Positions 26,397 through 30,770 of a stretch of 64,000 bases of DNA are shown here, in pieces. The DNA is from Voacanga thouarsii. Its lineage: Eukaryota; Streptophyta; Magnoliopsida; Gentianales; Apocynaceae. Under the pieces are notes generated by a model. The model had not been told where the DNA came from. It ran no database searches and saw nothing but the letters and a program-made list of their open reading frames with translations. The stretch is from contig JANUWF010002273.1 in assembly GCA_026120185.1 (NCBI GenBank), positions 1,905,001 to 1,969,000 of the forward strand. Reading direction: 5' to 3'. The position numbers and the translations under genes were made by a program. Position 1 is the stretch's first letter. Every line of letters starts with the position of its first letter.

Positions 26397-27020
26397 ATGG
26401 CTAACCTTGCTAACCTCGAATTTGTAGCCCTTGATATTACTGAAAAAATTATATGTCATACAGAAATGCATCTAAATGCTGGGAAAAAAAAGATCCATAT
26501 GTCCTGTGGGCAATTTAAATTTGACCACCTGAAGATGGTCGTATTACCAACTGCACGGTATAAATGATTGCAACTGAAGTTGCAAAATTTTAAAACCGTG
26601 AATGAATATGGCTTCGCGATATATCAACTTACATTTCAATTAAAATTATGCGGAGAAAAAGTTACTGATGAAGATATATTGGAGAAGACATTCTCCATCC
26701 TTCATGCCTCGAATATTGTCCTGCAGCAATAATATCGAGAAAAATGGTATACACGGATTTAATTACTGCCCTCATCATTGCAGAGAAACATAATGAGTTA
26801 TTATTGAAAAATCATGAAGTCAAACTAACTGGCTCAACAGCAGTCCCAGAAGTGAATGTTGTTGGCTCCAGCAGAAGCCATCGTTATAGTCGTAGTTGTG
26901 GCAATGGCCGTGGTTATGGTCATGGACACACTCGATATTTCCCTCAGCACAGAGCAATACTGACCACATAAAGTGGAACAGAAAAGATAATAAGGGAAAA
27001 TGTTATTTCCATTAATAATA
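26397..27020 (+). pseudogene. gag: Copia B gag (decayed, internally deleted)
   Basis: An ATG at 26397 starts MANLANLEFVALDI, typical of short-LTR plant Copia gag. After a deletion the later gag blocks appear (the LKLCGEKVTDEDILEKTFS region near 26640-26700, then the AEKHNELLLKNHE and TGSTAVPEVN blocks at 26744-26971). A Gly/Arg/His-rich segment precedes the place where a zinc knuckle is expected, but only KGKCY survives before recognisable similarity ends near 27.02 kb. Confidence 0.82.
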
Positions 27021-27230
27021 AGTATCACATCTTTGAGATGTTACATTTGGATGTCAATATATACTATATTACTGCTAACAGTTCAGAAAAAAAAATCTAT
27101 CTCCTCTTGATCATAAGTCTTGTGTTCACTTGCATTTCCTTTATTCATCTCACTGGTGTTCACATGAACTTGAGGATGCATGCTTGTAGTTGCTCTTTTT
27201 CAATTGAGTTGACAAATTGAGGATGAATGT

Positions 27231-28587
27231 TTATAGTTGTTCTTTTTCCATATTTGCACTAGAGGAAGACAAACAGGTAGCAATTATAGATTTCAGTTCC
27301 TCTTCTTCGACATTCTCCTTCTCTTCCTTCTCTCTTGGGCCAGCATCTAGACTAGCAACAGAATTAGCCGTGACGTTACTGCGCAATGAGTCTTGGGATT
27401 TTCTCATCCCCTTAAGTTTTTTATTATATTTGGCCTTGAAGCATGCTTGTCTCAATTTCTGTGTTTGGTCCTCCAACTGCATATTAGGACTTTCTTCCAC
27501 CAACTTCTTCTCACGTTCCAGTATCTCAATGGCTTCTCTTAACTTATGTCCTCCTTCGTCTTTATTTCACTCCTGTAAATCGAAGTGATATCATCGGCGG
27601 AGATACATTCATTCCAATAATTATTTACTTATTTCAGCAAATTACAAGTATGTGTGAGAGAAAACTTGAACATTCTTGATTAGGGTCTCCAAGCTTATCA
27701 ACTTCCTGTGAGGCCATCGACGAATTCCCAACTCCCTACATCTGTTCTTGAGAGGGGTTAAGCCAATATTCAGTTCTTTGGCCGCGCTCTTGATTGACAT
27801 GTAAAAGTACTGCGAAATGGTTTCTTTTGATAGTGTCTTGGAGCTATTACCCTTCTCCTCTCTCTGCCTCCTAATCCTCTCATTCTCCATAGAAATTTCA
27901 TCTGCAATAATATCTTGAACTTCGATATTATGCATTTCATAGGTCCTCACTCCAAATTCGTTACCAAGACCACTCATTATTTTTCCTAGAAAAGGAAAAA
28001 CAATATCAGTAAAGGTAATACTATGCAAAAGTCATGTTTGAATGTATGATAACCTGGAATCATATTCTGGCTTTGTTTAAAATCCATTAGGGAGTAGAAA
28101 GGATCATGCACAAGCATATCCTCATTCAGAGGAACAACATCAAAAGCATTCTCTTGAATGGGTAGATCAACAGCATCAAAAGCAATCTCTTGAATAAGTA
28201 AATCAAATTGAAAATCCAAAGTAGCATGTCCAGAACTACCATGGATTTACATCACAACAAACCAAAAGAGAGTTTAATTTCATTATTTCATTATTAAGCA
28301 CACTAAAAAAAAAAAAAAAGGAAGCCCTCAAAAGTATCTCACCTGAAATTAGGCGAAAGCGGTTGGCTTGGAAAGGAAAATAGATCAAAATCTTCTGCGT
28401 TAGACCTGACATTAGGCGGAAGCGGTTGGCTTAGAAAAGAAAACACATCAAAATCTTCTGCGTTAGAAACCAAGTCAAAATTTGACCATGTCTCAAATGA
28501 ATTACGAGTCTCTATATCTGCTTTGAGGTTTTTTATTTTTTTGATGTTTACTAATGGTTGATGATTGAGATATATATCGATACACAT
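27231..28587 (-). pseudogene. RKD: RKD-type RWP-RK transcription factor gene, intron-containing, one premature stop
   Basis: Four exons can be placed with GT-AG introns and matching phases: 28587-28343, 28235-28054, 27985-27666 and 27572-27231. Exon 3 encodes the RWP-RK DNA-binding domain (residues about 195-249; SIKSAAKELNIGLTPLKNRC, then RWPHRK at 27702-27719), which is intact. RKD proteins are nuclear regulators of egg-cell and embryo identity. Exon 4 encodes the C-terminal coiled-coil-like tail (REAIEILEREKKLVEE, then KLRQACFKA), but its second codon is TGA (27569-27567) where tryptophan is likely, giving a predicted 250-residue product. An AG further inside exon 4 could be used in frame to skip the stop. 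The start ATG at 28587 is the best available; upstream sequence looks like 5' UTR (pyrimidine-rich, TA repeats). The gene lies antisense within Copia B. Whether it is expressed is unknown. Confidence 0.85.
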
Positions 28588-28789
28588 ATATATATATATG
28601 TATATATTTGTACGAGGAAGAAGAAGAGATAGATGATAGATGGAGGGACGGAGGAGAAGAAAAGACAATGAGGAAGGGGAAAAGATGGTACCGGGAAGAG
28701 TGAAAAAAAAAGAGAATTTTTTTTCTTGGCATTTCCTACTTGTCATCATGTTCTTGCATTTCTTTTTCTTTTCCCTTATTCTCCTGTGA

Positions 28790-30770
28790 AATCATTATTC
28801 CCTAAATTAGGGGGAGAACAGAAACAGTATAAGAAAGATCTTGATTGAACAATATCATTAAATTATCATGATCTGCGTATAAGCGCGTGTGAACTTGAAG
28901 TTCAAAAGATAATTCATTTGCAAAGTATTGCAAATCCAAATCAAATGCCAGACACTTTTGTTGACTCCAGAAGAGTTACAAAATTGCATATTCTAGCCAT
29001 AAATGCTCCTATTCGAATTTAAGTTCCAGCTGAACAAAAGATTATACCTATAGCTGCTGAGCCAAAAGCATACCAGAAGCATGGCCAACCTCTTGGTTCT
29101 AAAGATAAAAATCCTTGAAAGAAGAGAGGATGAAAGGATCCAGATGATCATATTAGAAAAGAATGATAAAGACCAAGAGAAAACTGATGACAAAGAACAA
29201 GAAGTTGATAAAAGTAACACTGAAATTTCTATCAATTATACCACTTCCGGTAGAAGTTGGAATCGGACAGAAATAATTATTGATAATATGTTTGCATATA
29301 ATATATCTCTTGATGTTATACAGGATAATGATGATCCTGAACCAATATCAGTTGATGAATTTTGGCATAGAAAAGATTGGCTACAATAGAAAGATGTGAT
29401 TCAATCGGAGTTAAATGCACTGACACAACGTGAAGTCTTCGGACCTGCAGTATGAACACCAGAAGGTGTAAAACTTGTTGGCTACGAATGGATATTTGTG
29501 AGAAAGTGCAATGAAAATAATGAAATCATACGAGATAAAGTACAGTTAGTAGCCCAAGATTTTTTACAAAGACCAGGTATTGATTATAGTGAAACTTATT
29601 CTCCTGTTGTTGATGCTATTACACTCCGATATCTTATCAGTTTGACAGTACATGAAAAGATAGATATGCGCCTATTAGATGTTGTCACTGCTTACTTGTA
29701 TGGAAATTTAGAAAATGATGTTTACATGAAAATCCCCGAAAGATTTCATATGCCTGAAGCATATAAACATTATCCTCATGAAAATTACTCCATCAAGTTG
29801 CAGAAATCATTATATGTCTTGAAGCAATTTGGGCGCATGCGATTCAATCGTCTTAGTGAATATTTATTGAAAGTGTGATTTAAAAATAACCAGGTATGTC
29901 CATGTGTTTTTATTAAGAAATTTGGTTCTAAATTTGTGATATATGTTGATGATATTAATTTTATTAGAACTCCTAAAGAGCTCCAAGAAATAATTGATTA
30001 TTCGACATTAAGGATGTTGGTAAAATTACATTTTGCCTTGGTTCACAAATTGAACATTTGGCAAGTTTCATCAATCAACATATACAGCAAAAGTTCTAAA
30101 AAGCTTTTACATGGACAAAGCACATCCATTGAGTATTCCAATGATCGTCCAGTCATTAGATGTGAAGAAAGATTTTGACCTTAAGAAGATGATGAAAAAC
30201 TCATTGGTCCTGAAGTACCATATCTCAGTGTAATTGGTGCATTAATGTATCTTGCTAACAATATATGACCTGATATTGTATTTGCTGTCAATTTATTAGC
30301 AAGATTTAGTTCTTTACCAACACGACGACATTAGAATGGAATTACAAGTCCTTCGATATCTCCAAGCAGCTACTTCTTCAAATCATATTGAAAGTATAGC
30401 CATTCATGAGGTATGTAGAGAATGTGTATGGTTACGATCAATGATTCATGATATTCGAGAAAGTTGTGGATTATCATCTATCAGAGATATTCCAACTCCT
30501 CTTTATGAAGACAATGCAGCTTGCATAGCTCAAACACAATGAGGATATATTAAAGGAGATCGGACAAAACATATTTCACCAAAATTCTTCTTTACTCATG
30601 AACTCTAGAAGAAAGGTGAAATTGATGTGCTACAAATTCGGTCATGTGACAAACTCGCAGATATTTTCACGAAGACTTTACCGACTGCAACATTTGAGAA
30701 ATTGAGATATAAAATTAGTATGCGTCGGTTTAAAGATTTAAAGGAATCATTTCATCAGGGGGAGTAATAA
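28790..30770 (+). pseudogene. Copia B reverse transcriptase and RNase H (decayed)
   Basis: Similarity resumes near 28.79 kb after the integrase (block QKIIHLQSIANQMPD-like near 28900-28960, then GQPLGSKDKNP-like near 29075-29115). Reverse transcriptase blocks follow at 29498-29878 (VQLVAQDFLQRPGIDYSETY, LDVVTAYLYGNLENDVYMKI) and the YVDD box at 29940-29955. RNase H remains at 30336-30770 include YEDNAACIAQTQ and KLADIFTKTLP. Frameshifts and stops are frequent, so the enzyme is dead. Protease and integrase are missing altogether. Confidence 0.88.

What the first reader, a model, noticed from the sequence alone, without database searches (positions are those of the whole stretch)
27020..28790. 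RKD (RWP-RK) transcription factor gene carried antisense inside a Copia retrotransposon
The RWP-RK exon (with RWPHRK), its upstream exons and the C-terminal exon can all be placed on the minus strand with GT-AG introns in matching phase. They lie between gag and reverse transcriptase remains of a plus-strand Copia element whose LTRs are about 97 percent alike and flanked by a perfect gttat duplication. Protease and integrase are absent from exactly this stretch. Because the gene is antisense, its introns would not be spliced from the element transcript, so read-through capture into the element RNA explains intron retention. RKD genes control egg-cell and embryo identity, and members have been linked to nucellar embryony in citrus and mango, so a mobile copy is biologically notable.
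Basis: partly seen in the sequence, partly recalled or inferred. Interest (0 to 1): 0.92.

Follow-up and report, generated by a model that had tools for sequence, protein, structure and literature searches.

The report
Retrotransposon carrying a germline regulator gene
A plant jumping element has swallowed a gene for an RKD protein, a relative of regulators of egg-cell and embryo identity, carries it backwards with its introns in place, and has spread it to many places in the genome, apparently while its source copies kept that gene's reading frame open.

Summary
Confirmed. Window 25976-31249 is a Copia LTR element (LTRs 97.0% identical, GTTAT duplication). Its segment ~27005-28783 is an RKD (RWP-RK) gene on the minus strand, four exons with GT-AG introns, standing where a sister copy has CCHC, Pol_BBD, pre-integrase and integrase-end domains. 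The window's own RKD is dead (start ATA, TGA in exon 4).

It is not a one-off: the gag/RKD junction recurs at the same place in 24 of 24 alignable copies and the RKD/RT junction in 25 of 25; ten copies show canonical ends with 5-bp duplications, nine different. Junction probes gave 3,336 and 2,152 unscored candidates; all 80 scored matched nearly full length. One copy has identical LTRs.

No codon of RKD carries a stop shared by half of a clade; RT of the same copies has 4, 1 and 3 such codons. Neutral simulation expects 3.6 in clade B (1 of 150 runs gave none). Against: amino-acid constraint is weak, 1 of 34 copies is fully intact, and RT is also better kept than neutral in clade B.

Best reading: a non-autonomous Copia family, moved in trans, with a captured antisense RKD as probable accessory gene. 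Expression and function untested. New variant of a known kind; my literature searches listed no precedent.

The parts
25971..25975 (.). target-site duplication GTTAT, left
25976..26332 (+). 5' LTR, TGTT...AACA
   Evidence: 97.0% identical to the 3' LTR
26333..26352 (+). stretch after the 5' LTR, where the primer-binding site is expected (not tested against tRNAs)
   Evidence: sequence
26397..27004 (+). gag remnant, broken (longest open frame 99 codons); CCHC knuckle missing
27005..28783 (-). captured RKD segment replacing about 1.70 kb of Copia sequence; ends good to a few bases
   Evidence: same junctions in 24 of 24 and 25 of 25 alignable copies, against the sister copy
28343..28515 (-). RKD exon 1 (start codon ATA in this copy); holds a 63-bp direct repeat
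28054..28235 (-). RKD exon 2
27666..27985 (-). RKD exon 3 with the RWP-RK domain (RWPHRK)
   Evidence: PF02042 E 1.5e-21
27231..27572 (-). RKD exon 4; TGA at 27569-27567 in this copy
28784..30770 (+). end of the integrase region, RT and RNase H remains, with stops and indels
   Evidence: RVT_2 E 1.2e-25; 9 stops in the sister's RT frame
30881..30893 (+). purine-rich stretch before the 3' LTR (CGGGGAG)
   Evidence: sequence
30894..31249 (+). 3' LTR
31250..31254 (.). target-site duplication GTTAT, right

Best explanation
This is one decayed member of a high-copy, non-autonomous Copia family. Shown: one event replaced about 1.70 kb (CCHC knuckle to integrase end) by about 1.78 kb of an RKD locus, antisense and with introns, and the chimaera amplified as a unit through separate insertions. 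Inferred: it moves in trans with proteins of sister elements that keep those domains. Moderately supported: source elements kept the RKD frame open while their RT acquired clade-wide stops. Inferred mechanism: RKD is transcribed from the antisense strand, spliced, and acts as an accessory gene that favours element activity in egg, ovule or embryo cells, where new insertions are inherited. How the segment was captured (antisense read-through RNA with template switching, or DNA repair inside an inserted Copia) is open.
For: Junctions at the same place in 24 of 24 and 25 of 25 alignable copies; 17 of 19 distinct places fetched around RWP-RK hits hold RKD joined to this Copia; ten copies with canonical ends and nine different 5-bp duplications, L022 with 367 of 367 LTR bases identical; 40 of 40 scored matches to each of two junction probes, probes' own places included; sister copy with CCHC, Pol_BBD, gag_pre-integrase, SH3-like and RVT_2 sharing an LTR with copy L025. 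Frame kept: no RKD codon with a stop in half or more of 17 B copies, neutral mean 3.6 [1-8], 1 of 150 runs at zero; ten stops in eight junction-chosen B copies, neutral 36.5 [14-68], 1 of 150 runs as low; RT has 4 (A), 1 (B) and 3 (C) clade-wide stop codons.
Against: Amino-acid constraint is weak: corrected N/S 0.64-0.67 within and between B and C, 0.81 and 0.93 from A to B and C with intervals reaching 1, 1.11 within A, and B/C copies there were picked by RWP-RK score. Only L025 of 34 copies has start, frame and all splice sites intact. L022, the youngest by its LTRs, has four frameshifting indels in RKD, so an open RKD is not needed in cis. Clade A fits neutrality (20 stops, neutral 30 [17-48]). 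In clade B RT too has fewer stops than neutral (21 against 73 [38-105]), so RKD is not unique there. Frameshifts were not in the null model. No expression data.
Confidence: 0.7

Rival explanations
1. Passive cargo: RKD was captured once and hitch-hikes; its open frame reflects recent capture or a few lucky source copies, and it has no function for element or host.
For: Weak N/S; decay in single copies; L022 moved with a frameshifted RKD; clade A fits neutrality.
Against: Absence of clade-wide RKD stops in B is met in 1 of 150 neutral runs at the scale matching the divergence and 3 of 150 at a larger one, while RT of the same copies has clade-wide stops.
Confidence: 0.28
2. RNA-level role: LTR-driven element transcripts are antisense to RKD mRNA and yield small RNAs that dampen host RKD or the element itself.
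For: Orientation follows from the sequence. [quoted passage not shown] Antisense transcripts are discussed as siRNA sources for LTR elements (PMC7264820).
Against: An RNA role does not need an open frame. Copia RKD is only about 74-78% identical to the RKD loci L037 and C486. No small-RNA data.
Confidence: 0.12
3. Host use: a few copies serve the host as RKD genes and the family's source copies were among them, so host selection kept the frame.
For: Open frame in source lineages; an intact copy exists (L025).
Against: No copy is shown to be expressed or fixed in relatives; not testable with the data held.
Confidence: 0.1
4. A later insertion of an RKD-bearing transposon, or an assembly artefact.
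For: RKD copies in other arrangements exist in this genome (L023:8587-9363, L038, L039, C486 pair).
Against: An insertion would leave the Copia flanks contiguous with the sister copy; 1.70 kb is missing instead, and the same junctions stand on many contigs. I did not scan the segment for terminal repeats.
Confidence: 0.03

Closest known systems
Antisense accessory ORFs of plant LTR elements (Grande gene23, RIRE2, Retand TRP28, PvRetro13)
   Same: Conserved reading frame antisense to gag-pol in many copies; some products nuclear or predicted to bind DNA; Grande gene23 has its own promoter (PMC7264820 parts 1-2 of 3; PMC11963269 passages).
   Different: [quoted passage not shown] here Copia, in place of the CCHC-integrase region, with introns and a recognisable host family.
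Host genes transduced by LTR elements (maize Bs1; tomato Rider/SUN; rice and sorghum surveys)
   Same: Capture of host sequence by an LTR element.
   Different: Transduced genes are usually in sense and in one or a few copies (PMC7264820); here antisense, with introns, in a large family.
AlkB m6A demethylase domain of Phalaenopsis Gypsy elements
   Same: Recent acquisition of a host-like domain by a high-copy element family.
   Different: In a screen of 121 angiosperm genomes all 15 extra domains passing its filter were in Gypsy elements and RWP-RK is not named (PMC9289625 abstract and section 12; figures and supplements not seen).
Pearl millet RWP-RK family expansion
   Same: RWP-RK genes increased in association with LTR elements (PMC10011142, passages).
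   Different: The passages speak of LTRs near or encompassing the genes; they describe no Copia family with a fixed antisense RKD.

Membership tests
Copia LTR retrotransposon | two LTRs with TG...CA ends and a 5-bp target duplication | tested here: met
   window and nine further copies
Copia LTR retrotransposon | Copia-type RT (RVT_2), integrase upstream of RT in complete members | tested here: met
   RVT_2 in the window; in the sister copy gag_pre-integrase and SH3-like integrase end lie upstream of RVT_2; the integrase core itself was not scored because the frame was cut at a locus edge
Autonomous element | intact gag, protease, integrase, RT | tested here: not met
   CCHC to integrase region absent; longest gag frame 47-116 codons in 23 of 24 copies measured, 161 in L026; RT with stops in 24 of 25 copies
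RKD subfamily of RWP-RK proteins | RWP-RK domain and full-length similarity to RKD proteins | tested here: met
   PF02042; L025 protein 42% over 90% to Cornus florida RKD1-like, E 3.7e-60; no tree of the subfamilies was made
Antisense accessory ORF (aORF) elements | extra frame antisense to gag-pol in most copies of a family | tested here: inconclusive
   antisense in all RKD-bearing copies seen, but the share of family copies with RKD was not counted
[quoted passage not shown]
   lies between gag and RT
Antisense accessory ORF (aORF) elements | own antisense promoter and transcript | not testable with these tools
   no RNA data
Accessory gene under selection | frame kept against neutral decay | tested here: inconclusive
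   clade-wide stops absent where 3.6 are expected in B; weak N/S

The most novel reading that the evidence does not exclude
A retrotransposon family has turned a captured germline-identity transcription factor into its own accessory gene: RKD protein made from its antisense strand switches on the element, or the cell state it needs, in egg, ovule or early embryo cells, so that new insertions are inherited; in passing it floods the host with mobile RKD genes.
Probability: 0.3. Interest if true: 0.95.

Novelty: new variant of a known kind. Interest (0 to 1): 0.8.

Why it matters
It is a large, datable case of a Copia family built around an intron-bearing host developmental regulator in antisense, with a sister copy lacking it and RKD loci outside it in the same genome for comparison. 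It makes testable whether retrotransposons exploit germline regulators to be inherited, and whether they amplify genes of the kind linked to nucellar embryony. It also warns that RWP-RK gene counts in such genomes can be inflated by element copies.

Tried and rejected
Wrong-frame control for stops: frames +1 and +2 gave ratios of 0.65-1.23 and the RKD frame 0.15-0.50, but for a frame that began open the neutral ratio is about 0.5, so I dropped that control and used forward simulation. Raw dN/dS (0.35-0.65) overstates constraint because synonymous sites differ more than introns in most comparisons; replaced. The first simulation (7 stops in B+C against 65) used B and C copies picked by RWP-RK score; the eight junction-chosen B copies carry 0.35 stops per 100 codons against 0.12 in score-chosen ones, so I rely. 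C copies remain score-chosen.

Structure database by sequence with the window's exon 3 frame: no match. Plasmid records: no match. Species not identified: a host DUF569 gene in L024 is closest to Catharanthus roseus, 74%; genome size, 1,345.7 Mb, is near that given for Voacanga thouarsii, 1,351.2 Mb (PMC10963385, passages), which proves nothing. A pattern count of the gag/RKD junction and a matK search did not complete.

Rows dropped: L021 (inside L022); L009 and L010 (no RKD-Copia at the hit); L013 (no gag side) and L025 (second gag tail) from the gag junction alignment; L012 (two elements) from the RT junction alignment; L020 from RT counts; L038 and L023b from trees and tests. L017, which branches beside B, was counted with C.
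Full report
OBSERVATION. The window holds a Copia element at 25976-31249: LTRs 25976-26332 and 30894-31249, 97.0% identical, TGTT...AACA ends, GTTAT on both sides, a purine run before the 3' LTR. Between a gag remnant and RT/RNase H remains lies an RKD gene on the minus strand: four exons, GT-AG introns of 107, 68 and 93 bp, RWP-RK domain E 1.5e-21. 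This copy is dead as a gene: start codon ATA, TGA at codon 217, two frameshifting indels against copy L025. The RKD protein of L025 resembles RKD proteins along most of its length, for example Cornus florida RKD1-like, 42% over 90%, E 3.7e-60, and Nyssa, 46% over 80%.

IT IS A FAMILY. The RWP-RK profile gave 3,618 first-look candidates in this 1.35-Gb genome; the 150 scored are all over the cut-off with no stop in the domain, many with one and the same score. Of 19 distinct places fetched around such hits, 17 hold RKD joined to this Copia; L013 lacks the gag side and L020 much of RT; L009 has no such element, and L010's hit is another RWP-RK gene beside a partial element. A probe across the RKD/RT junction gave 3,336 candidates; 40 were scored, the window itself and 39 others at 92-97% over nearly the whole probe. 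The same junction from B-type copy L024 gave 2,152 candidates; 40 were scored, L024 and 39 others at 98-99%. The two lists share no place. Candidates are unscored, so thousands of copies are likely but not counted.

JUNCTIONS. In 24 of 24 alignable copies the gag side gives way to RKD flank at the same place (five with small local indels or duplications); in 25 of 25 the RT side resumes at the same place; both counts include the window, of 26 copies then held. A sister copy that follows L025 and shares its LTR runs on instead into CCHC knuckle, Pol_BBD, gag_pre-integrase and SH3-like integrase-end domains and RVT_2. Its own RT frame is broken, and whether an intact autonomous member exists was not tested. 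So about 1.70 kb was replaced by about 1.78 kb of RKD locus. RKD loci without Copia flanks in the fetched stretch are L037, with introns in the same places, and an inverted pair on C486 whose 3' flank resembles the captured segment to within some tens of bases of the gag junction. L037, C486 and L039 keep a stretch (EFN...LLLCDG) that Nyssa RKD also has and the Copia copies lack, which fits the direction host to element; L038 and L023b lack it too. L037 has another C-terminus and is not the direct donor.

MOBILITY AND AGE. LTR divergence (K2P) runs from 0 in L022 to 0.109 in L015; five copies had no LTR pair in the stretch held and L012's row is not an LTR pair. A tree shows an older clade A, with the window, and younger B and C; L017 branches beside B but was counted with C.

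IS THE RKD FRAME KEPT? Corrected for the mutation spectrum of the copies' own non-coding parts, N/S is 1.11 within A, 0.67 within B, 0.64 within C, 0.64 [0.49-0.86] between B and C, 0.81 [0.65-1.04] and 0.93 [0.75-1.18] from A to B and C; B and C copies there were picked by RWP-RK score. This is weak constraint on amino acids. Stops tell more. Eight junction-chosen B copies carry ten stops in 2,874 codons, all at different codons. No codon has a stop in half or more of 17 B, 23 B+C or 11 A copies. Neutral simulation along the tree, started from an open frame and matched to the observed divergence, gives 3.6 [1-8] such codons in B, 1 of 150 runs at zero (3 of 150 at a larger scale), and 36.5 [14-68] stops in the eight junction-chosen copies, 1 of 150 runs as low as ten. 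Clade A fits neutrality: 20 stops in nine copies against 30 [17-48], and its zero shared stops are uninformative (67 of 150 runs). RT of the same copies has clade-wide stops at 4 codons in 11 A, 1 in 9 B and 3 in 5 C copies; I made no null for that count. Total RT stops are 97, 21 and 36 in A, B and C against neutral 57, 73 and 33, so in B RT is also better kept than neutral. The longest gag frame is 47-116 codons in 23 of 24 copies measured and 161 in L026. Only L025 of 34 copies has start, frame and splice sites all intact, and L022, with identical LTRs, has four frameshifting indels in RKD. My reading: source elements of B, and probably C, kept RKD open; an open RKD is not needed in cis, and inserted copies decay freely.

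HOW IT WORKS. Shown: capture, amplification as a unit, loss of the CCHC-integrase region. Inferred: movement in trans with proteins of sister elements; antisense transcription and splicing of RKD; a benefit in reproductive cells. RKD genes acting in egg-cell and embryo identity is established knowledge; CitRKD1 is needed for somatic embryogenesis in citrus nucellus (PMC6090715, abstract). Not decided.

LITERATURE. Seen: PMC7264820 parts 1 and 2 of 3; PMC9289625 abstract and section 12; passages of PMC13317346, PMC11963269, PMC10011142 and PMC10963385; PMC6090715 abstract; PMC3726574 gave no passage for my terms. Searches joining RWP-RK or RKD with retrotransposon, LTR, Copia, capture or transposable element listed no report of an RKD gene inside a Copia family; RWP-RK and RKD do not occur in the text of PMC13317346. 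The library lacks most subscription papers and bioRxiv. Nearest kinds: antisense accessory ORFs of Gypsy elements and transduced host genes. This differs in superfamily, in position, in a recognisable host family with introns, and in copy number.

OTHER RKD COPIES. The genome also holds RKD copies outside this arrangement. A Nyssa RKD query ran through the last intron position without a gap in many of the 207 matches (129 of 6,587 candidates scored), often with stops. L039 lacks the last intron, L038 lacks the last and keeps another, L023:8587-9363 keeps the last and lacks others. How they moved is unknown.

Noticed in passing
L038:515-1700 and L039:465-1316: RKD copies with the last intron spliced out and a shared 3' tail that ends at the same place in both; many similar intronless matches. 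A second mobile form of RKD?
   Followed up: partly
L023:8587-9363: RKD copy that keeps the last intron but lacks the first two, next to an RKD-Copia element.
   Followed up: partly
L042, L041, L043 (C486:1178700-1184300): Inverted repeat of over 5.3 kb, arms 87% identical, with two head-to-head RKD exon 3-4 halves at its centre.
   Followed up: partly
L025:8242-10000 and L040: RKD-Copia copy and a sister copy with CCHC and integrase-end domains share one LTR in tandem.
   Followed up: partly
28341-28467: Direct repeat of about 63 bp in RKD exon 1 (NAEDFDxFSFPxQPLPPN); its number of units varies among copies.
   Followed up: no
25993-26157: Five TTAGTGG/CCACTAA pairs in the LTR, partly palindromic; also present in the sister copy's LTR, so older than the capture.
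   Followed up: no
6035-7365, 8652-9979, 17718-18938: Repeat present three times in the window; the same repeat abuts the truncated RKD in L039 and sits inside the element of L011.
   Followed up: no
1094-6041 and 11508-16498: Two inverted copies, 80% identical, of another Copia-like element.
   Followed up: no
45245-46544: Tandem array of roughly 150-bp units.
   Followed up: no
48369-48839: Open frame resembling quinolinate synthase (recognised from memory, not tested), perhaps a host exon in this TE-rich window.
   Followed up: no
19458-21604: Minus-strand frames resembling a hAT-type transposase (recognised from memory, not tested).
   Followed up: no
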